Shown here piece by piece: positions 3,890 through 64,000 of a stretch of DNA of 64,000 nucleotides; position 1 is the stretch's first letter; each line of letters starts with the position of its first letter. This DNA comes from Lysobacter sp. Root690 (GTDB lineage: Bacteria > Pseudomonadota > Gammaproteobacteria > Xanthomonadales > Xanthomonadaceae): the NCBI RefSeq assembly GCF_001427785.1, contig NZ_LMHM01000018.1:385309-449308 (forward strand). The letters are read 5' to 3'. The notes beneath the pieces were generated by a model. The model was not told where the DNA came from and did no database searches. It saw nothing but the letters and a program-made list of their open reading frames with translations. A program made the translations under genes and the position numbers.

Positions 3890-4954
3890 GTGACCGCATC
3901 TTCTTCCGACACCACCCCCAAGCCGCTGACCTACCGCGACGCGGGCGTCGATATCGACGCCGGCAACGAGGTGGTCGAACGCATCAAACCGCTGGTCAAG
4001 CGCAGCTTCCGACCCGAGGTGATGGGCGGCCTGGGCGGCTTCGGCGCCCTGTTCGACCTGTCCGGCAAATACCGCGAGCCGGTGCTTGTCTCGGGCACCG
4101 ACGGCGTCGGCACCAAGCTCAAGCTGGCCCAGCAGCTGGGCCGTCACGACACCATCGGCATCGATCTGGTTGGCATGTGCGTCAACGACGTGCTGGTGCA
4201 GGGCGCTGAGCCGCTGTTCTTCCTCGATTACTTCGCCACCGGCAAGCTCGACGTGGACACCACGGTCGCCGTGGTCGGCGGCATAGCGCGCGGCTGCGAA
4301 CTGGCCGGCTGCGCGCTGATCGGCGGCGAAACCGCCGAGATGCCCGACATGTACCCGCCGGGCGAATACGACTTGGCCGGCTTCACCGTCGGCGCGGTCG
4401 AAAAGTCGCAGATCCTCGACGGCTCGCGCGTGAGCAAGGGCGACGTGCTGATCGGCATAGCCTCCAGCGGCCCGCATTCGAACGGTTACTCGCTGATCCG
4501 CCGGATCTTCGACCGCGCCGGCCGTCCGGGCGACGTCGCCGTCGGCGGCGTGCGCCTGATCGACGCGCTGATGGAGCCGACCGCGCTGTACGTCAAGCCG
4601 ATCCTGGAACTGCTGCGCGCCAACGGCGGCGAACACCGCATCCACGCCATGGCCCACATCACCGGCGGCGGCCTGACCGAGAACATCATCCGGGTGATCC
4701 CGGCCGGGCTCGGCCTCGACATCCGCACCGCGACCTGGCAACTGCCGCCGGTGTTCGACTGGCTGCAGCGCGAAGGCGCGGTGCCGCGCGAGGAAATGTG
4801 GCGCACCTTCAACTGCGGCATCGGCTTCGTGCTGGTGGTGCCCGAGGACGCGGTCGCCGCGACCCAGGCCGATCTGGCCCGCCTGGGCCTGTCGCATTGG
4901 CGCATCGGTGAAGTCGTCGCGCACGGCGAAGGCGAGCGCGTCCACATCGGATGA
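3890..4954 (+). CDS. purM: Phosphoribosylformylglycinamidine cyclo-ligase
   Basis: PurM catalyses the ATP-dependent closure of the imidazole ring that gives aminoimidazole ribonucleotide, the fifth step of purine synthesis, in the cytoplasm. The 354-residue length is normal. Diagnostic segments are visible: SGTDGVGTK at residues 68-76, the [11 protein letters not shown] loop near 145 and ITGGGLTEN in the C-terminal half. Translation begins at a GTG. In many gammaproteobacteria purN follows directly; here the next gene is a DUF2238 protein overlapping by four bases, and purN lies 18.4 kb away. Confidence 0.96.
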
Positions 4955-56208: not shown

Positions 56209-57132
56209 ATGGCAGACGCAAGTTCCGGAGTCTCGGGCTCCTCGCAGAATTCTTCGGCCTCCGCTCAACAGAGCCAGGCCGCCAACGAAGCCGCCGAAGC
56301 GCAACGCGCCGCCGAAGCCGCCGCGGCCGCAGCAGCGGTCAACGCCACGCCGACGCCCGCGCTGACCACGGTCGAAGCCGCGCCGGTAGACCTGAGCGTG
56401 CCGATGAGCGCGCTGTCGCAACTCAACGCAATGCAGGTCAACACCCCCGCGCTCGACTTCTCCTCACTGACGACACTGGGCGGCGTCCCCACCAACGCCA
56501 CCTACGCCGATGTTGCCCTCTCCGCGCTCGCCACCCCGACGACGACGGTGGAAGAGTTCAACGCCTTCTCGCCGGCCTTCAGCATCGACGGCTTCAACGC
56601 CGCCGACATCGCCAATACCGACATCAGCAACGTCGGCATCAACCTCGGCCTGAGCTACACCGGCTCGCTCGACGCGACCATGAACGCCCGCTTCGGCCTG
56701 GACCCGGCCAACGTCACCGTGAGCGGCAGCATCGGCTACAGCAACGACCTGAGCAGCTTCAACCTCAGCGCCACCGCCGGCCCGTTCGGCAGCGCGGCCC
56801 AACCCAACTACGGCGCGACCGTCAAAGGCAGCCTCGACCTGGGCAACCTCAACGCCTTCGACTTCAGCGGCACCGCGAACTTCAACGCCCAGGGCTTCCA
56901 GAACGGCAACGTCAGCCTGGGCCTGACCCGCGACTTCTCCGAAAACCTCAGTGGCTATGCGCGCGGGACGGTGGGCTTTGGTCGCGATGGCGTCAGCAAT
57001 GTCACTGGCGAGACCGGGCTCAACTACAACCAGGGCGGCACGTCGCTGGGGCTGACGGGGCGCGGGAGCGTGGATACGAATACCGGGGCATTCACCGGGT
57101 ATGTCGGGGCTCGGGTTGGAATCAGGTTTTGA
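56209..57132 (+). CDS. Beta-rich repetitive protein of unknown function
   Basis: The 307-residue product has no signal peptide. Residues 1-50 are rich in Ser, Ala, Gln and Glu (QQSQAANEAAEAQRAAEAAA). The rest is Asn/Gly/Ser/Thr-rich with alternating hydrophobic residues that suggest about 14 beta strands (SIGYSNDLSSFNLSATAG, VGFGRDGVSNVTGETGL). It ends in GARVGIRF, a terminal phenylalanine as in outer-membrane barrels. AAGGAG precedes the ATG. The last 62 residues and 3' flank are duplicated at 59846-60085. I do not recognise the family. Export by a non-Sec route is possible but not shown. Confidence 0.6.
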   Translation: MADASSGVSGSSQNSSASAQQSQAANEAAEAQRAAEAAAAAAAVNATPTPALTTVEAAPVDLSVPMSALSQLNAMQVNTPALDFSSLTTLGGVPTNATYADVALSALATPTTTVEEFNAFSPAFSIDGFNAADIANTDISNVGINLGLSYTGSLDATMNARFGLDPANVTVSGSIGYSNDLSSFNLSATAGPFGSAAQPNYGATVKGSLDLGNLNAFDFSGTANFNAQGFQNGNVSLGLTRDFSENLSGYARGTVGFGRDGVSNVTGETGLNYNQGGTSLGLTGRGSVDTNTGAFTGYVGARVGIRF

Positions 57133-57224
57133 TTGATTACCGCAGCGATTGATATTGCGATATCGCAAAACTCGCCTTGACCTCAGACTCTTACCTACCC
57201 TATCCCTATTTAGCTAGTCACATG

Positions 57225-57545
57225 TTAGGTATAGGGGTCAAAATCGAAAGAAGCACCAATACTCGCAATTTTATTGATCGTGTTTTTTGACAAATGCACA
57301 GAAGGACGGATATAGACATCCTCCGCCGACAAGACCAAAGAGATTTGGGGATCATCCCCGAGACCGACTCCCTTTGCCTTCATATCGACTAGGTCACGCA
57401 CCACAAAATCAATCAACTGAGATATGCAAGTATCGATTTCATCAAGATTGAAATAATCAAATTCTTTAGATGCAATTATCTCATCGAGACCATTGCCGAG
57501 CTTCTCACCAATAACTCTTACAAGCACCTTCGTCTTCATTTCCAT
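57225..57545 (-). CDS. Small acidic protein, candidate orphan immunity protein
   Basis: The 106-residue product is acidic and lacks a signal peptide (DEIIASKEFDYFNLDEIDTC, LSAEDVYIRPSVHLSK). It lies at the far end of a leftward series of small genes downstream of the Rhs gene, in AT-richer DNA than the flanks. Polymorphic-toxin immunity proteins are often of this size and composition. No family is recognised and no cognate toxin for it is in the window. Confidence 0.5.
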   Translation of the reverse strand: MEMKTKVLVRVIGEKLGNGLDEIIASKEFDYFNLDEIDTCISQLIDFVVRDLVDMKAKGVGLGDDPQISLVLSAEDVYIRPSVHLSKNTINKIASIGASFDFDPYT

Positions 57546-57630
57546 CTGTAAGGGGTTTCCTCAACTATCGGACCTCTACATCCGTGGGCCTTGACCACAA
57601 CACGACCATCCTTACAGCCACCAGCCAACA

Positions 57631-57676
57631 GGGGTCGGAGTGGACTCTTTCGAAAGTCCACTCCGACTCCTATTTT
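57631..57676. repeat. Palindromic element copy A
   Basis: Left arm GGGGTCGGAGTGGACTC, centre TTTCGAAAG, right arm TCCACTCCGACTCC, followed by TATTTTAC. One of six related palindromes in the 57.6-60.2 kb segment. It lies between the genes at 57225 and 57693. Confidence 0.85.
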
Positions 57677-57692
57677 ACAAGCGGCGACTCAA

Positions 57693-58073
57693 TCATAGAT
57701 GCCGAGCACACTCATCGCGCCATCGAAAATAGATATCCGTGGGGAAAAGCTTATCGGTCTTGAACGATTGCTCCACCGGAACATATCCATGGCAACCGCG
57801 GTAATCCAGCTCCACCAATACCTGATTCGGCGCACCACTCCGCGCCGAGAGCACTAATGTTTTCGCATCTCTTCGCCAAACACCTCGCACCTCACGCTCT
57901 GGGCAAATATCACAATTCTCCTTCGAAACATACGTACCGTCTTTATGCAGCTCGAAGGAACTTGTGACCCCACGGCCTCGCACCCAGACTTCACCACGCT
58001 GCTCTTTAATAGAGCATGACGCGACTAAAATAATCATCAACGCAATCAAGAAATTAATGTAACGAAACTTCAT
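57693..58073 (-). CDS. Small lipoprotein, candidate orphan immunity protein
   Basis: The 126-residue product has a lipoprotein signal (INFLIALMIILVASC) and a mature part with four further cysteines (NCDICPE, GCHGY, ECARH) and beta-rich character. AGGTGG lies seven bases before the ATG. It is AT-rich compared with housekeeping genes. Its place in the series below the Rhs gene, with palindromes on both sides, suggests an immunity cassette; function is unproven. Confidence 0.55.
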   Translation of the reverse strand: MKFRYINFLIALMIILVASCSIKEQRGEVWVRGRGVTSSFELHKDGTYVSKENCDICPEREVRGVWRRDAKTLVLSARSGAPNQVLVELDYRGCHGYVPVEQSFKTDKLFPTDIYFRWRDECARHL

Positions 58074-58154
58074 GCAGCACCACCTGACAGCTTCCGTAGA
58101 GTTCCATTCGCCATGTACGGCATGTTTCTTGCGGTATCACGGATTGCCCAGCAA

Positions 58155-58234
58155 ACAGGGGCAGGAATGGGCTTTTTCGAAAATCCACTCTGCCCCCTAT
58201 TCCGGCGAGTGGACTTGTCCGAAAGTCCACTCGC
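58155..58234. repeat. Palindromic element copies B1 and B2
   Basis: Two adjacent copies. B1 (about 58157-58200) is GGGGCAGGAATGGGC, TTTTTCGAAA, ATCCACTCTGCCCC, then CTATTCC. B2 (about 58204-58234) is GGCGAGTGGACTT / AAGTCCACTCGCC around GTCCGA. They lie between the genes at 57693 and 58356. Confidence 0.85.
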
Positions 58235-58355
58235 CCCCTGAATTCCCGCGCATGGCTGAACAAACCGAGCATACGCTCACGTCCATCGTCAGCAATGACG
58301 CTCCATTCTCGTCGCGGCAAAAAGCAGCGGCGGCAGAAGGATGAACTAGTTCTCG

Positions 58356-58694
58356 CTAAAGCCCATCAATAATTTCCAGGAGCTCCCCCGAGTCGTCATA
58401 GCTATAGAATTTTTCATCTCCTATCGCGCCCAAGCATCCTTCGTCGACCAGAGAGACTCGCGTCGCCGCTACCGACCACCCTTTCGGCGTCTTAGCCACT
58501 ATGTAATCACATCCTTCAGAGGTTCCGGCACAAAACCTCGCTGATTCGGCCATAGCCTTTTTAGCAACGACCAACGCATCGCCCTTTAAGCCCGAAGGAG
58601 AGACTCGACCACCGCACGGAATATTTTTCGGTGAGCAGCCTACGACACCCAAAAGCAACAACGTCCAACTTCGGTTTAGCCAAACATTACTCAT
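58356..58694 (-). CDS. Small lipoprotein, candidate orphan immunity protein
   Basis: The 112-residue product has a lipoprotein signal ending LLLLGVVGCSPKN. The mature part contains four more cysteines (PCGGR, RFCAGTSEGC, GCLGA) and an acidic C-terminus (SYDDSGELLEIIDGL). I start at ATG 58694, since the GTG two codons upstream has no better ribosome-binding site. It is in the same leftward series; no palindrome separates it from the membrane-protein gene above it. Confidence 0.55.
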   Translation of the reverse strand: MSNVWLNRSWTLLLLGVVGCSPKNIPCGGRVSPSGLKGDALVVAKKAMAESARFCAGTSEGCDYIVAKTPKGWSVAATRVSLVDEGCLGAIGDEKFYSYDDSGELLEIIDGL

Positions 58695-58785
58695 AGTCAC
58701 GGAGCCCGCCAGGACACGTACTGTTTCGCCACTGAATCAGTCAAAGCTACAACAGATAGCTGAATGAAGACATCTCACATGATGT

Positions 58786-59163
58786 TCACCGGGCATGCTT
58801 ATGGCGAACGGCTAACCAGCAATGTAGCGTTACAGGATTAAAAACCAAGAAAACAAGCAGAAACCACTTATTAATTAAAACAAGCAGCAGCGAAGAATAA
58901 GAAACCCCGACCACAAAAGGAAGAGCCCTAAACATTCTTGGCATAAGAACGCACAGGAAAACTTCCAGTACGACCGATATTAGCGAGAACGCCAAGGCGA
59001 CTAAAGGGGAAAAAATCAAAAACATCATTGGCGACATCTCTGGCCTTAAATCCATCCAGAAATAATAAACAACCCTGATCACCGAAAAAGCGATCGCCGA
59101 GGCAGCCGCGCCTAAGGCGACTAACCCATAATACTTCAATCCTGCACCCCTCACTTTCTGCAC
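58786..59163 (-). CDS. Small membrane protein, candidate orphan immunity protein
   Basis: The 125-residue product has three to four hydrophobic helices (about 13-33, 43-72 and 82-115). The start is uncertain: GTG at 59163, a second GTG three codons later, or a TTG after GGGGTGCAGG. Membrane immunity proteins are known for pore-forming or envelope-targeted toxins. It may form one cassette with the lipoprotein gene at 58356. No family is recognised. Confidence 0.5.
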   Translation of the reverse strand: MQKVRGAGLKYYGLVALGAAASAIAFSVIRVVYYFWMDLRPEMSPMMFLIFSPLVALAFSLISVVLEVFLCVLMPRMFRALPFVVGVSYSSLLLVLINKWFLLVFLVFNPVTLHCWLAVRHKHAR

Positions 59164-59206
59164 TCATACATCGAAAACATACCGGCACACTCCAATCGAA
59201 AATATG

Positions 59207-59252
59207 GATCGAAGTAGACTTTTCGAAAGTCCACTCAGACCCTTATCTTGGA
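59207..59252. repeat. Palindromic element copy C
   Basis: GGATCGAAGTAGACT, TTTCGAAAG, TCCACTCAGACCC, then TTATCTTG. The left arm is more diverged than in the other copies. It lies between the genes at 58786 and 59281. Confidence 0.75.
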
Positions 59253-59280
59253 AGCGCAAAGTTTCAATCCGACCTACTCT

Positions 59281-59691
59281 CTAGATGGCTTCACGATCAA
59301 GCTGTTTCGGCTTGATCGCTTCCCAGAAGAGCCACGGCTGATCCAAGCAAGCTGGAACGGTTATATCGAATGACACCATTCCATTCGCTGGCGCTCGTCC
59401 TCTGTCGGCTAGCTCTTCTTCCTGAAAATAAATTGGATAACGGCGCCCCTTCCACTCCGACGGCGACAGGACATCAAATTGTGTCGAAGAAAAATCGACT
59501 CCAAATCCATCGAAATCCATATGCAGAACGTTTTCCTTCGTCTCACTTATAGTGCCGGCCAGAAAAATTTTCTGACCAGAATCCGTTGGTGGCATATCCC
59601 GGCAACGGTAAGGAGTAAGAGTGGCGCCACTCGAATGCGCACAGCTTGACAATGAAAATAAAAACAAGCAGAGAAAAATATTATTATTCAT
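59281..59691 (-). CDS. Small lipoprotein, candidate orphan immunity protein
   Basis: The 136-residue product begins MNNNIFLCLFLFSLSSCAHS, a lipoprotein signal with lipobox LSSC. A beta-rich mature part follows with FLAGTISETKENVLHMDFDG, YFQEEELADRG and two cysteines. ATG at 59691 is preferred because GGAG lies five bases upstream; the frame continues to 59742. It is in the leftward immunity-like series with copy D upstream. Confidence 0.55.
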   Translation of the reverse strand: MNNNIFLCLFLFSLSSCAHSSGATLTPYRCRDMPPTDSGQKIFLAGTISETKENVLHMDFDGFGVDFSSTQFDVLSPSEWKGRRYPIYFQEEELADRGRAPANGMVSFDITVPACLDQPWLFWEAIKPKQLDREAI

Positions 59692-59798
59692 ACATACTCC
59701 GACATTAACCGAAGCCGTGAATGTCATTGTAAGGGATAGCAACGAGATTGACTAGGCATGTCCGGCCCCGGGTCTTTAGGCACGCCCAGTCCAGAAAA

Positions 59799-59848
59799 TA
59801 GAGGTCTGAATGGACTTTTTCGAATGTTCACTCCGCCCCCTATTTTGA
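59799..59848. repeat. Palindromic element copy D
   Basis: ATAGAGGTCTGAATGGACTT, TTTCGAA, TGTTCACTCCGCCCCC, then TATTTTGAAA. Its right end directly abuts the duplicated 3' fragment of the beta-rich gene. Confidence 0.8.
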
Positions 59849-60085
59849 AACCTAAGCGGCTATGCGCGTGGCACCGTGGGCTTTGGTCGCGATGGCGCCA
59901 GCAATGTCACCGGCGAGACCAGCCTCAACTACAACCAGGGCGTGACATCGCTGGGGTTGACGGGGCGTGTAAGTGTGGATACGAATACCGGGGATTACAC
60001 CGGATACGTTGGAGCGCGGGCTGGGATCAAGTTTTGACTGATCGTCGCGGCGATTGATATAGCGCTGTCGGGAAACTCAATCTGA
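59846..60085 (+). pseudogene. Displaced duplicate of the 3' end of the beta-rich gene
   Basis: This stretch matches about 56938-57160 closely: the last about 60 codons of the gene at 56209 (SGYARGTVGFGRDGASNVTG, LNYNQGVTSLGLTG, ending GARAGIKF and a TGA at 60035-60037) plus about 45 bases of 3' flank with GCGATTGATAT. No start or 5' part is present. It is therefore an orphan 3' end, and the two copies bracket the small-gene array. Confidence 0.88.
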
Positions 60086-60149
60086 TTCCGACCTTCTTGT
60101 TCTCACGACCTTTGCGGCGTGAGATCGACCGTTCGCTTCAGCAAGCGAA

Positions 60150-60196
60150 TAGGGGCAAGAGAGAACTTCTCCGAAAGTCCACTCTGCCTCTCTTTC
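60150..60196. repeat. Palindromic element copy E
   Basis: ATAGGGGCAAGAGAGAACTT, CTCCGAAAG, TCCACTCTGCCTC, then TCTTTCGC. It lies between the displaced 3' end and the gene at 60349 and is the copy closest to the Rhs gene. Confidence 0.8.
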
Positions 60197-60348
60197 GCAG
60201 ACCTTCTTTCGCTATGGATTACCGGCCCACTTGTGTGAGTGCGGACGGATATCAGGCTGTAGATACCTGCGTGCCGCGCTTGATTACACGGCGTGACTGG
60301 ACAGTCTGAGCTACACCCAGTAGAAGCAAAGAAGCGCGCCACTAAAGC

Positions 60349-60648
60349 TCACTGGCCTTTATCGATATGAACCACCCGCAATTTAGAATTAAAAACCACC
60401 GAATAGCCGAATCCCGGAGGACGAGGCACGTTAACCGGTGTACTGGAAGGAACCGCCGTCCAATATATAATTTCGCCGCAATCAACCCTATCCAGCAGCA
60501 GATAACTGCTTAAACCTTTCTTCTCCAGCTCAGCCCTGACCATCTCGGGAACTGATCTTTCCACACCAACACTCGATACGCATTCCTCGGATTGTGCGCA
60601 TCCGATTGCCGAGATCAAAAGGAAATTTACCAGCCATATGCGTCGCAT
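60349..60648 (-). CDS. Small lipoprotein overlapping the Rhs gene, likely cognate immunity
   Basis: The 99-residue product has a lipoprotein signal (WLVNFLLISAIGCAQSE) and a short mature part with two more cysteines (ECVSS, DCGEII) and a proline stretch. AGAGGAAG lies before the ATG, which is 22 bases inside the 3' end of the Rhs gene. Such overlap is normal for a cognate immunity gene. A lipid-anchored immunity protein would fit a toxin acting in the periplasm. Function is inferred from position. Confidence 0.65.
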   Translation of the reverse strand: MRRIWLVNFLLISAIGCAQSEECVSSVGVERSVPEMVRAELEKKGLSSYLLLDRVDCGEIIYWTAVPSSTPVNVPRPPGFGYSVVFNSKLRVVHIDKGQ

Positions 60649-63600
60649 CTATAGCGCTTCCTCTCCGAGCTTGCCACCCTGAGCTGGCTTTCGATATGGC
60701 TCTTACACGGCGGGCATTGTCCTTCACTAGTAGCTTCGAGCTTTTTCAGACAGGATGCACCGATTTTGTATGCCCTGCACTCAGTCTCAGCATTAGCTAT
60801 AATAAAAGCATCGTAAGCGAAATCTACCGGATATGGCGCAGCACCCTTTGGGCGATTTTTACATACGCTACCGAATTTAGCCTGCAAAAAACGTCTATGT
60901 TCGTTTTCGTGTAATTGCGTACACTGCCGCCCACATGTGTTGTCGCAGTTTGAAACGACGAGACCACCCTTGCCATCACAATATGTCAAACCATAGTTAC
61001 CACCACAATTGGCCGTTGGAAAAACAACCTCCAACCCTAAAGGATCCACCCATAGCACCGGGTTTGAAATGGCATAAGCGTAGGTACTGACACCACCTCT
61101 CAATCCGATAGGATCACTCTGGATATAACGACCGCCAGCTGACTCATAGTCACGATAATAGTTGTAACTTAGGCGACTTAACGAATCGTATCGCTGCCCC
61201 GGAAGCCGCATATCGAGCACAAGTGCAATGCCGTCCAAATCCGGATCTTGATTCGGCGCACTGTCGCCAAACGCCTCGCCCTTCAAATCCCAGCTCCAGA
61301 CCGCCACATTCCGAACCGGATCGATCACCATCCGCGGTGTACCCAAGTGATCGGGTTCGATGTAGTGCAGCGCCTGCTGCGCGCCGTTACCGGCCCACAG
61401 GCCAACCGGCAGATCATCCATCCAGATCGCCTGCTGGATCACATTGCCATTGTCGTCGTACTCGCCCAACCACTGGCCAAATTCGCTATAGACCACATGG
61501 CGATCATTGGCAGCGGTGTACTTACGAACCTGCTCGCCCTTGCCGTTATATACATAGGTTTGAATCAGGGTCGCACCCTGCTTGAGTTCGCTGCTACGGC
61601 CAGCGTCGCTGTAAATGAAGCTGTTCACACCGATCTGGATGGAATTGCCGCTGGCGTCATAGGTCCGCGGACTGTCCGGACCGGCCTGTGTCAGGCGGTG
61701 GCTGTCGGTCGGGTAGGTATAAGTCTTGCTGCCGCTTGCCGTAGTTATGCTCTGGCGGTTACCGGTGGCGTCATAGGTATACGCCTCGATCGCCGTATTG
61801 GTCGGCCCATCGCGCAACGCGGTCAAACGATTTAGTGCGTCGTAGCCGAAGGTCAACCACGTATTGGTCGCGCCAGCGGGCGTGAGCTTGTCGATATTGC
61901 CGACCGCATCGAAGCCAAAACCGACCGACAGACCGCCGGCGGACGGATCGACGACGGCCGAGGTGCGGTAATCCAGATCGACCGGCCGCGCGAAAGTACG
62001 GCCGTTGCCGTAGGTCCAACCCGCGGTCGGGCCGAACGGGTGATACGTGGCCTGGCTCAGCAGCACTTCGGTCGTCGCGCCCGCAACCGCGCGCTTGGTG
62101 TCGATCTGGCTGATGCGACCCTGCGCGTCGCGCTGATAGGTCACGACCGCGCCGTCGGGATAAGTCAGGCTGCTCAACTGCCCCGCCAGCGTGTACGCAT
62201 AGCGCACCACGAACACTTTGCCGTTGGTGGTCTGCACCTTGCGGACCGTGCGGCCGAAGCGGTCGTAGCAGTACTGGGTGCTGCCGCTCGCATCGGTGAT
62301 CAGCGACAAGCGGCCCTTGGCGAAGGTCTCGCCCGCGGCGCAAACGGTGGGCACGGCGTCGTACTCGTAACCCACGTTGAGGCTGGTGGTCGGGTACGCG
62401 ACCGCGATCGGCCGATTGAGCGCGTCGTAGCTGTAGGTGCGCGTGATGTTGCGCGCGTCGGTTTCGGTCTTGCGATTGCCGGCGCTGTCGTAGGTATAGG
62501 TCGACACGCCGGTATCGGGACTGGTCAGCTGCACCTGATCGCCGAAGCCGTTGTAGGCATACGTGGTGTCGAGATTCTTCGGATCGGTGACCTTGGTCAG
62601 GCGATCCAGCGCGTCGTACTTGAACTCGGTCTTGGCGTTGATGCCGCCGACGTCCTGCAATGTCTTGGCCAGGCGATTGAGCGGATCGTAATCGTTGTCG
62701 ACCTTGCGGCCCAAGGCGTCGGTGGTGACATCGCCATTGCCGCTGGCGTCGTAGGTGAAGCCGGTCGGGTGATCGTAGGCCGTCTTGGCGGTTTTCAGCT
62801 GACCGAGCTGGTTGTAGATCCGCGACAGCGTGCGCTTCAACGCGCCATTGCTGTCGCGGGTGTCTTCCTTGGTCCGCGCGCCGGCGGCGTCGAGCGTGTA
62901 GTGGATGCGGTTGCCGACGTTGTCGTAGATATCGGTCAGACGGTGCGCCGCGTCGTACTCGTAGCGGATGAAGGCGCCGTCGGGCTGGATGACTTTCTTG
63001 ACCTGTCCGATGAGGTCGTACTCATAGCGGATGATCACGTCATCGGTTTCGGAACCGGCGTCGGGGCCGCGCATCTTCGTGCTGGCCAACCAGCCGCGCG
63101 GCAGGTACTCCATATCGGTGACGACACCGTTGGCGTCCTTGCTGGAAAGCAGACGGCCGCTGTAGTCGTAGCGCAGGAACTCGGTAACGTGTCCCAGCGA
63201 GTTGGTGATCTTCCACAGATCGCCTTTGCGGTAGGCACATGTGGCCGGCGACGTGGCGCAGGTGGCGTCATCGCTGGCGTAATAGGTGTAGCTGGCGATG
63301 TCGTTCACATCGGCGCGAGGGCCGTCGACCGATTTGATCGAGCCCACGACCGGGCAGATGCCGGCCGTCACGTCGCTGGGATCGCAGTACGCGGTGGTTA
63401 CGGTTCGCTCGGCCGCGGTGGCTGGATCGACCTGGGTCGATGTCAGGGCCTGACCGCGACCGTTGTAGGTCCACTTCGACTTGGCTACCAACGCATTGGT
63501 GTTGTCCAGAATGCGTCGCTCGCTCGGCAGCGAATAGGACGGAACCCAATCCGTCTGCGTGGTACGGGTAAACGCCGTTACGTTGCCATTTCCAGAAGCC

Positions 63601-64000
63601 AGCCCGGTCTTACGAGTTAGCTCGTGAAAATGATCGTAGGTGTACTGGGTCCGCATGCCACGTGCGTCCTCGCTCCATTGCCGACGGTTGCCGCTATAGA
63701 ACGCCGTATCGGTTCCGGCCACGGAGCCGTCGGTGACGGACATCGCGACCTTGGTCGGCTGACGAAAAATCTCCGTGGAGAAGGTATAGGCCTTGGTCGA
63801 TCCCGTCGGCAGCGTCACCGTGGTTCCACCCGAAGCACCATAAGTTAGCGTGACTTTGCCAGCGCCATCCGCGTGATCGCTGACCACGACACGGCCGAAT
63901 TCGTCGTAATCGTAGGTCGCGTAGCGCTGCCCGTTCTCGTCGATGACGCCGGTCAGATGATGGCTGAAGTTGACTGGATTGCATCCCGGCACCGTGGTGC
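60627..64000 (-). CDS. Rhs-repeat polymorphic toxin with HExxH metallopeptidase-like tip (5' end outside window)
   Basis: At least 1124 residues are present; the N-terminus lies beyond the window edge. The bulk is YD/Rhs repeats (YDYDEFGRVV, YTYDHFHELTRKTG, RYDYSGRLLSSKD, KYDALDRLTKVTD), which form the encapsulating shell. The core ends with the usual Rhs boundary RYIQSDPIGLRGG...NPVLWVDPLGL at about 61031-61120. The 134 residues after DPLGL are AT-richer and cysteine-rich (about 13 Cys). They contain QLHENEHRRFLQ (HENEH at 60897-60911, matching HExxH), with a possible third ligand Glu in ETECRAY. Tips of this kind are replaceable toxin domains. The overlapping lipoprotein gene is the likely antidote. 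Confidence 0.88.
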   Translation of the reverse strand, partial: TTVPGCNPVNFSHHLTGVIDENGQRYATYDYDEFGRVVVSDHADGAGKVTLTYGASGGTTVTLPTGSTKAYTFSTEIFRQPTKVAMSVTDGSVAGTDTAFYSGNRRQWSEDARGMRTQYTYDHFHELTRKTGLASGNGNVTAFTRTTQTDWVPSYSLPSERRILDNTNALVAKSKWTYNGRGQALTSTQVDPATAAERTVTTAYCDPSDVTAGICPVVGSIKSVDGPRADVNDIASYTYYASDDATCATSPATCAYRKGDLWKITNSLGHVTEFLRYDYSGRLLSSKDANGVVTDMEYLPRGWLASTKMRGPDAGSETDDVIIRYEYDLIGQVKKVIQPDGAFIRYEYDAAHRLTDIYDNVGNRIHYTLDAAGARTKEDTRDSNGALKRTLSRIYNQLGQLKTAKTAYDHPTGFTYDASGNGDVTTDALGRKVDNDYDPLNRLAKTLQDVGGINAKTEFKYDALDRLTKVTDPKNLDTTYAYNGFGDQVQLTSPDTGVSTYTYDSAGNRKTETDARNITRTYSYDALNRPIAVAYPTTSLNVGYEYDAVPTVCAAGETFAKGRLSLITDASGSTQYCYDRFGRTVRKVQTTNGKVFVVRYAYTLAGQLSSLTYPDGAVVTYQRDAQGRISQIDTKRAVAGATTEVLLSQATYHPFGPTAGWTYGNGRTFARPVDLDYRTSAVVDPSAGGLSVGFGFDAVGNIDKLTPAGATNTWLTFGYDALNRLTALRDGPTNTAIEAYTYDATGNRQSITTASGSKTYTYPTDSHRLTQAGPDSPRTYDASGNSIQIGVNSFIYSDAGRSSELKQGATLIQTYVYNGKGEQVRKYTAANDRHVVYSEFGQWLGEYDDNGNVIQQAIWMDDLPVGLWAGNGAQQALHYIEPDHLGTPRMVIDPVRNVAVWSWDLKGEAFGDSAPNQDPDLDGIALVLDMRLPGQRYDSLSRLSYNYYRDYESAGGRYIQSDPIGLRGGVSTYAYAISNPVLWVDPLGLEVVFPTANCGGNYGLTYCDGKGGLVVSNCDNTCGRQCTQLHENEHRRFLQAKFGSVCKNRPKGAAPYPVDFAYDAFIIANAETECRAYKIGASCLKKLEATSEGQCPPCKSHIESQLRVASSERKRYRCDAYGW

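What the first reader, a model, noticed from the sequence alone, without database searches (positions are those of the whole stretch)
57631..60196. Repeated palindrome punctuating the immunity-like cassettes
Six copies of a 40-45 bp palindrome share the consensus GRGTGGACTTTTTCGAAAGT followed by CCACTCNGCCCC and CTATTTT. They occur only in the intervals between the small genes and next to the displaced gene end, not elsewhere in the window. They lack T-runs on the strand of the genes, so they are poor terminators for those genes. They could be recombination or insertion sites that allow cassettes to be added, or processing/attenuation hairpins that set the expression of each cassette.
Basis: partly seen in the sequence, partly recalled or inferred. 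Interest (0 to 1): 0.88.

Follow-up and report, generated by a model that had tools for sequence, protein, structure and literature searches.

The report
Mobile palindromes in toxin-immunity gene arrays
The six repeated palindromes look like shrunken, partly decayed copies of a small bacterial jumping gene that often sits among genes for bacterial toxins and protection against them, and seams where such gene arrays were rearranged fall on these palindromes more often than chance would give.

Summary
The six palindromes are real. They are decayed miniature copies of a mobile element with inverted ends AAACAGGGGTCAGAGTG. Larger copies (836-861 bp where both ends are kept) encode an IS200-like (Y1/HUH) transposase; three, partly broken or unreadable, lie about 160 kb away on the same contig. 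In relatives the miniatures are visibly its left and right ends fused. The end motif GGGGTCAG fits GGGGWSAS, published for TIRYT elements. The genus is Lysobacter. The element is low-copy and clustered: 18 of 37 cluster regions hold an Rhs-type gene against 1 of 37 arbitrary regions (not GC-matched). Others lie beside GmrSD, nSTAND/Mrr or T4SS-effector genes or no clear neighbour, so it is not confined to immunity loci, and most Rhs loci lack it. Homology blocks end at palindrome edges 14 times against 3.4 expected. The displaced gene end in the window begins at the edge of palindrome 5. In another Lysobacter the second copy of a 0.95-kb block with two small genes is bounded on both sides by the element's ends. 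Best reading: mobile-element ends serving as breakpoints when immunity arrays are built and rearranged. Transposase-driven cassette movement is plausible, unproven; termination was not shown.

The parts
57627..57676 (.). palindrome c1, about 16 bp past the stop of the small gene 57693-58073
58154..58203 (.). palindrome c2
58204..58240 (.). palindrome c3, abutting c2 (shorter arms)
59201..59252 (.). palindrome c4 (diverged, loop one base shorter)
59797..59846 (.). palindrome c5; its outer edge is the junction to the displaced gene end
60147..60197 (.). palindrome c6 (decayed); a homologous relic lies at the same place in G003
56209..57132 (+). conserved gene of unknown function, convergent to the Rhs gene; the array lies between them
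59848..60078 (+). displaced copy of the 3' end of gene 56209-57132 and its downstream bases (84% to 56943-57173); begins at the edge of c5
57225..57545 (-). small gene, immunity-like by position only (no family above cut-off)
57693..58073 (-). small gene; a homologue (54% identical) directly follows an Rhs gene in G001
58356..58700 (-). small gene; a homologue (56% identical) lies next to the same conserved gene in G014, without palindrome there
58786..59163 (-). small gene, hydrophobic product, immunity-like by position only
59281..59742 (-). small gene, immunity-like by position only (start uncertain)
60349..60648 (-). small gene next to the Rhs tip, presumed cognate immunity
60627..63992 (-). 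3' two thirds of an Rhs toxin gene; the gene runs out of the window (1655 codons in all)

Best explanation
Each palindrome is a miniature, non-autonomous copy of a TIRYT-type element: a Y1 (HUH) transposase gene between inverted ends AAACAGGGGTCAGAGTG...; in the miniature the left end is fused to the right end, which makes a near-perfect hairpin when young. Shown: the relation of miniatures to full elements in relatives, the clustering near Rhs-type and some other conflict genes, the excess of homology-block ends at palindrome edges. Inferred: the transposase placed them there; because the ends are cleavage and hairpin sites, they later acted as breakpoints at which blocks carrying immunity genes were added, duplicated or joined to other DNA. 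In the window an array block (57.18-59.85 kb) was added between the conserved gene and the Rhs gene; its left side rests on homology within the conserved gene and its right side is the edge of palindrome 5, leaving the older gene end displaced. No host function of the hairpins is needed; effects on RNA may be by-products.
For: Y1_Tnp genes at C18:279-282k carry the arms. Of the 10 of 37 cluster regions with a transposase hit, six (L067, L072, L075, L083, L084, L094) hold in all nine copies with an arm on each side in inverted orientation, some of them truncated, damaged or with unread bases; four (L060, L064, L070, L086) have arms on one side only. Miniatures of G006 and G015 (74-78 bp) consist of the element's left and right ends; one 50-bp miniature of G003 does so clearly, others with changes (judged by eye). 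NCBIfam's best model is REP-associated tyrosine transposase. Rhs-type gene in 18 of 37 cluster regions against 1 of 37 control regions; transposase in 10 of 37 against 0 of 37. 14 of 360 homology-block ends at arm edges against 3.4 (sd 1.8) with shifted positions, maximum 12 in 2000. Window junction at c5, with the G003 orthologue lacking the block. G015: 0.95-kb block duplicated, second copy bounded by element ends on both sides. G004: about 30 bp of the same conserved gene (25 of 30 identical) trapped between two palindromes and abutting one.
Against: The element is not confined to immunity loci and most Rhs loci seen lack it, so arrays can form without it (G001, G009 and G014 have no arm at 1 mismatch or fewer). 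Case regions are AT-richer than the controls (58% against 68% GC in the central 6 kb), so part of the association may be a preference for accessory islands; an insertion-sequence control was not possible because DDE_Tnp_1 was found in only 2 of 20 genomes. The 14 ends come from 10 regions and are not independent. Both-sided block bounding was seen once. No movement was observed, no clean empty site was found. The window copies are decayed and no full element lies in the array.
Confidence: 0.68

Rival explanations
1. Passive clutter: the miniature elements insert wherever AT-rich accessory DNA tolerates them, and immunity arrays are such DNA. They play no part in cassette gain; seams coincide with them only because repeats and hairpins mark generally unstable DNA.
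For: Clusters also lie beside GmrSD, nSTAND/Mrr, T4SS-effector (XVIPCD), HNH and peptide synthetase genes. Case regions are AT-rich. Genomes without the arm also hold immunity homologues beside Rhs or the conserved gene.
Against: Seams fall within 10 bp of the outer edges more often than at shifted positions, and one duplicated block ends at element ends on both sides.
Confidence: 0.35
2. Array growth by homology-facilitated illegitimate recombination of incoming DNA, as proposed for Vibrio cholerae immunity arrays, with palindromes as break-prone hairpins (for example cut by SbcCD, recalled) and no role for the transposase.
For: In the window the left junction is homologous and the right one is not. 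Two seams lie in short matches shared by target and element end (L059, GAAAAC; L084, TTGGGCTCC). The Vibrio paper describes displaced 3' ends and recombination without specific integration sites (PMC5361080, passages).
Against: It does not by itself explain why transposase copies lie in 10 of 37 cluster regions.
Confidence: 0.4
3. RNA hairpins that end, process or protect the transcripts of each cassette.
For: All six fold well as RNA. REP sequences are reported to act on RNA (recalled; also titles in a reference list seen).
Against: No terminator-like site at any palindrome; no palindrome between two adjacent small genes; orthologous loci without palindromes at 3 mismatches or fewer (G003, G009, G014; G003 keeps a decayed relic of c6); no Rfam match.
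Confidence: 0.12
4. Integron-like attC sites of a site-specific recombinase.
For: Hairpin sites between small genes resemble integron cassettes in layout.
Against: No Rfam match; the repeats are ends of a Y1-transposase element; no integrase among the families shown for the neighbours scanned (one search showed 25 of 37 families).
Confidence: 0.02

Closest known systems
TIRYT / TIRtron elements (Di Nocera et al. 2013, PMC3733652; probably subclass 2.1 of Quentin et al. 2018, PMC6006769)
   Same: Y1/HUH transposase gene between terminal inverted repeats; end motif GGGGTCAG fits GGGGWSAS; solo ends occur as dimers and clusters, as the 2013 paper reports for other species (passages).
   Different: No HTH domain was detected at the C-terminus, which subclass 2.1 members are said to have. 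A link to toxin or immunity genes is not in the 2013 paper: 'toxin' and 'Rhs' occur 0 times in its main text, 'immunity' once, in a reference.
REP / REPIN sequences with RAYT transposases (PMC2817692, passages; PMC3116915, listing only)
   Same: Palindromic, non-autonomous, linked to a related transposase; may accumulate near the transposase gene.
   Different: No GTAG-type tag; tens of arms per genome rather than more than 100; transposase scores below the NCBIfam RAYT cut-off (63.3-69.5 against 80 bits).
T6SS immunity gene arrays of Vibrio cholerae (PMC5361080, passages)
   Same: Arrays of orphan immunity genes with displaced 3' ends left by additions.
   Different: There recombination is described as without specific integration sites; here seams tend to lie on mobile palindromes. 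The displaced end in the window belongs to a convergent neighbour gene, not to the effector.
Orphan Rhs tips and immunity genes
   Same: Rhs core, variable tip, small immunity genes downstream.
   Different: Ordinary in themselves; here interspersed with a repeat family.

Membership tests
TIRYT / TIRtron | IS200-like Y1 transposase with HUH and catalytic tyrosine motifs | tested here: met
   Y1_Tnp above cut-off in the three relatives' copies scanned and four hits in this genome (two of them at the arms); NHVH and YIELNP seen in the ORFs; motif meaning from PMC6006769 passages
TIRYT / TIRtron | gene flanked by inverted repeats | tested here: met
   nine copies in six of the 10 regions with a hit have an arm on both sides; L060, L064, L070 and L086 have arms on one side only
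TIRYT / TIRtron | end motif GGGGWSAS | tested here: met
   GGGGTCAG in the arms; motif from PMC3733652
TIRYT / TIRtron | C-terminal HTH domain (reported for subclass 2.1 of PMC6006769, not a stated part of the TIRYT definition) | tested here: not met
   no HTH model up to E 10 in the three proteins scanned, though HMMER's filters drop most weak matches. So it is not filed as a subclass 2.1 member; the paper says subclass 2.1 only probably equals TIRYT
TIRYT / TIRtron | transposase cuts these ends | not testable with these tools
   needs biochemistry
REP with RAYT | GT[AG]G tag at the hairpin foot | tested here: not met
   no such tag at the foot of the arms printed (read by eye)
REP with RAYT | transposase in NCBIfam NF047646 | tested here: not met
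   four proteins, 63.3-69.5 bits, cut-off 80
REP with RAYT | high copy number (more than 100 per genome, abstract) | tested here: not met
   30 arms in this genome at 2 mismatches or fewer; 1 to 22 arms at 1 mismatch or fewer in the 10 of 20 genus genomes that have any
intrinsic terminator | GC hairpin followed by a T-run on the gene strand | tested here: not met
   four-T run in 2 of 6 only
integron attC | attC match and integrase | tested here: not met
   no Rfam match; no integrase among families shown for scanned neighbours; the whole genome was not searched for an integrase
immunity gene array | small genes homologous to genes directly downstream of polymorphic toxins | tested here: met
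   57693-58073 has a homologue directly after an Rhs gene in G001; shown for one of six genes. SUKH, CdiI_4, CdiA_C and EndoU matches occur among 97 small ORFs of clusters
immunity gene array | protection against the cognate toxin | not testable with these tools
   needs a bench test

The most novel reading that the evidence does not exclude
A single-strand (HUH) transposase family serves as a cassette builder for bacterial conflict loci: its ends and solo hairpins bound blocks of immunity and defence genes, which are copied, added and reshuffled between arrays, an integron-like role without an integron.
Probability: 0.22. Interest if true: 0.85.

Novelty: new variant of a known kind. Interest (0 to 1): 0.6.

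Why it matters
How orphan immunity genes are gathered into arrays is open; the Vibrio work describes recombination without specific integration sites. Here a defined mobile repeat marks some of the seams, so the question becomes testable by strain comparison and transposase assays. It would also give a role to TIRYT transposases: only 2 papers in the library searched use the names TIRYT or TIRtron.

Tried and rejected
Rfam at gathering thresholds: nothing. BLAST of the array against plasmids: nothing. Intrinsic terminators: none at the palindromes. Integron attC: rejected (and the element's own transposase). The control by another insertion-sequence family failed for lack of copies (2 of 20 genomes). 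The transposase against solved structures: nothing. An exact two-arm pattern in genome contigs gave 2 stretches only: one in Lysobacter sp. Root916, whose contig has the same length as G012 contig 11, and one in a Gemmatimonadetes MAG; exact matching misses decayed copies, and records near the window's genome may be left out there. The end motif searched in PMC gave 18 papers, none by its title on bacterial repeats. Clean empty sites of single palindromes were not found: of the 14 seams two had a match that resumed on the other side, both within larger rearrangements. Covariation of the hairpins was not tested. No strain-level comparison was possible.

Literature on a link between REP/RAYT/TIRYT elements and immunity arrays: 238 papers with two of three terms; order puts three-term papers first and none of the 20 listed has all three; 363 papers, 10 listed; 7; 9; 2; 20, 15 listed. 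None of the listings shows such a link; one paper holding both tyrosine transposase and immunity gene (PMC3390384) treats them in separate sections (passages). Passages were read of PMC6006769 (and section 20), PMC2817692, PMC3733652, PMC5361080 and PMC3390384; PMC3116915 was seen only in listings. The library holds open-access papers only.

Rows dropped: of 121 small ORFs of 18 clusters 97 were scanned, and of 136 ORFs of the other 19 clusters 53; transposases and doubtful overlapping ORFs were left out by hand, not by a fixed rule. Homology blocks under 180 bp, blocks overlapping the transposase and ends near region borders were left out.
Full report
What is there. The region 57.1-60.7 kb lies between a conserved gene of unknown function (56209-57132, +) and the 3' end of an Rhs toxin gene (from 60627, -). 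It holds six small genes on the minus strand, six palindromes and a displaced copy of the 3' end of the conserved gene. The palindromes are real (4 of 6 found at 3 mismatches or fewer against 0.02 expected; folding z-scores -2.9 to -7.7). They are imperfect; in the relative G004 the same kind of element is a perfect hairpin of -51.6 kcal/mol.

Whole-genome view. The window lies in a 6.3-Mb genome. The outer arm AAAYAGGGGKCAGAGTG occurs 30 times at 2 mismatches or fewer, with 0 for the reversed control: 11 arms at C1:538-544k, 6 at C12:518-626k, 2 at C13:808k, 7 at C18:279-282k and 4 in the window array. The inner stem differs between clusters while the outer arm is kept. The C12 arms are solitary, without a partner arm. 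In the genus, 10 of 20 genomes have the arm at 1 mismatch or fewer; in a sample of the family, 62 of 198 genomes from 26 of 54 genera; the reversed control is 0 in every listed genome. The genus is Lysobacter: one relative, G012, has a contig of the same length (415,160) as one of Lysobacter sp. Root916 holding the same pattern.

What the palindrome is. At C18:279-282k the arms flank genes for an IS200-like Y1 transposase. In the cluster regions fetched from the genus, 10 of 37 hold a relative of this transposase, 0 of 37 control regions do. Nine copies in six of these ten regions have arms on both sides in inverted orientation; some are truncated, damaged or have unread bases; four regions have arms on one side only. 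Longer units with both ends measure 836-861 bp. The miniature palindromes are made of the two ends of this element: in G006 and G015 the 74-78-bp ones carry about 28 bases of the left end and about 50 of the right end; a 50-bp one of G003 joins a left end ...AGAGTGGACTTTCCTTAG to a right end AAAGTCCACTCTGACCCC..., those of G004 are similar with changes (judged by eye). So they are non-autonomous derivatives, and the window's copies are older, decayed ones; c6 has a homologous relic at the same place in G003.

Name. Di Nocera et al. 2013 (PMC3733652, passages) call Y1 transposases with terminal inverted repeats TIRYTs, report a shared motif GGGGWSAS in some of the repeats, and say that many TIR elements occur as dimers or clusters. 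GGGGTCAG fits. Quentin et al. 2018 (PMC6006769, section on subclass 2.1) equate TIRYTs probably with subclass 2.1, whose members carry a C-terminal HTH; I found none by Pfam. The RAYT equivalog of NCBIfam is the best match but below its cut-off in four of four proteins, and there is no GTAG tag. I therefore file the element under TIRYT by its ends and transposase, leave the subclass open, and do not call it a REP.

Where it sits. I grouped the arms by hand into 36 clusters and added the window's own, which is too decayed for that search: 37 regions of 20 kb. With the same tblastn queries, 15 of 37 hold an Rhs core and 18 of 37 an Rhs core or a large Rhs-type C-terminal part (17 of 36 without the window); of 37 regions at round coordinates fetched without looking, 1 did. 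A nineteenth (L078, an SpvB/TcdB-like protein with an RHS repeat) was recognised by Pfam, which was not run on the controls; the Fisher test printed uses 19 and is for that reason not relied on. By number, 69 of 127 arms at 2 mismatches or fewer in the 37 regions lie in those 19. In this genome 3 of 8 clusters, the window's included, lie within 10 kb of one of 12 Rhs loci seen, which cover 4.6% of the genome with that margin; in G004 4 of 7, 10 loci, 4.2%. Those extents were entered by hand and the Rhs lists are capped (150 of 448 and 474 candidates scored), so the true cover is somewhat larger. The other clusters lie beside GmrSD-type genes (L061, L088), an nSTAND/Mrr gene (L069), T4SS effector genes with XVIPCD (L061, L068), an HNH gene (L091), a UvrD/DUF2290 pair (L077), a peptide synthetase gene (L076), or genes without a clear role; OLD-like or AAA genes flank two of the Rhs clusters (L075, L086). 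The two largest clusters without a recognised toxin are L084 (G015, 13 arms) and L088 (this genome, 11 arms).

Of 97 small ORFs near palindromes in 18 clusters picked as toxin-associated, few match Pfam at all: SUKH, CdiI_4, CdiA_C, EndoU, DUF6959 and some housekeeping families. That set wrongly included L076 (peptide synthetase) and L084 (no toxin recognised). Among 53 ORFs of the other 19 clusters PADLOC lists 114 families, of which 25 are shown, each matching two members, many of them models of AAA ATPases (GajA, PtuA, AriA, Old); which members is not told.

The small genes. For one of six the immunity role is supported by context: a homologue of 57693-58073 (54% identical) directly follows an Rhs gene in G001. 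A homologue of 58356-58700 (56%) lies beside the conserved gene in G014, where no Rhs gene was seen in the stretch listed. Both genomes have no arm at 1 mismatch or fewer. The palindrome is therefore not needed for such genes.

Seams. In G003 the conserved gene is followed by the sequence that in the window lies at 59847-60196, then a small region and the Rhs gene; the block 57.18-59.85 kb is missing. In the window the displaced gene end begins at the outer edge of c5. In G004, about 30 bases of the same conserved gene (25 of 30 identical) lie between two palindromes and abut one. A general count: among 360 distinct ends of homology blocks within 3 kb of an arm (transposase matches excluded), 14 lie within 10 bp of an arm edge; shifting the ends gives 3.4 on average (sd 1.8, maximum 12 in 2000). 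They come from 10 regions, four of them from L084 alone. Examples are a displaced Rhs fragment (L059), a displaced toxin fragment (L078, 8 bp from the arm), a 281-bp fragment beside a peptide synthetase operon (L076) and tandem copies (L081). In G015 a block of about 0.95 kb with part of the transposase gene and two small genes occurs twice, 96-98% identical, the first copy with about 100 extra bases of end-like sequence; the second copy begins at one element end (within a short shared match) and stops at another.

How it most likely works. Shown: element identity, clustering, excess of seams at the edges. Inferred: the transposase inserted the elements; later breaks or strand transfers at the hairpin ends joined array blocks to new places, with homology on the other side where available. 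Whether the transposase itself or a hairpin nuclease made the seams cannot be told from sequence. A terminator role is not supported, and RNA processing is untested.

Novelty. The element is a new member of a described class. Its concentration near toxin/immunity loci and the seams at its edges were not found in the listings, which cover open-access papers only.

Noticed in passing
L008 519950, L009 545181, L011 626007 (own genome, C12): Solitary arms followed by a partly shared 40-60 base stretch (TTTCAAAGG...CGAAATACCA) and no partner arm nearby: perhaps ends of another, longer element of the same class.
   Followed up: no
L076 2736-3016 and 10586-10865 (G012): A 281-bp duplicate abuts a palindrome beside a peptide synthetase operon, the same layout as in the window but without a recognised toxin gene.
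   Followed up: partly
window 60627-61070: The variable tip of the Rhs protein holds HENEH beside cysteines, like a metallopeptidase motif; the G001 tip (L058) has HESSH. Motif reading is by eye.
   Followed up: no
L051 4518-5313 (G014): Two small immunity-like genes remain beside the conserved gene although no Rhs gene was seen next to them in the listed stretch.
   Followed up: partly
L133 3130-3199: A 70-bp palindrome with both arms exact in a Gemmatimonadetes MAG contig, far from Lysobacter.
   Followed up: no
L050 (reverse strand) about 4160-4760; L067 6280-7242 with L094 12609-13571: Near the arrays: a stretch rich in repeated CTTGCG-like words in G004, and a block 85% alike between G004 and this genome.
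   Followed up: no
genus genomes: DDE_Tnp_1 transposases were found in only 2 of 20 genomes of the genus.
   Followed up: no
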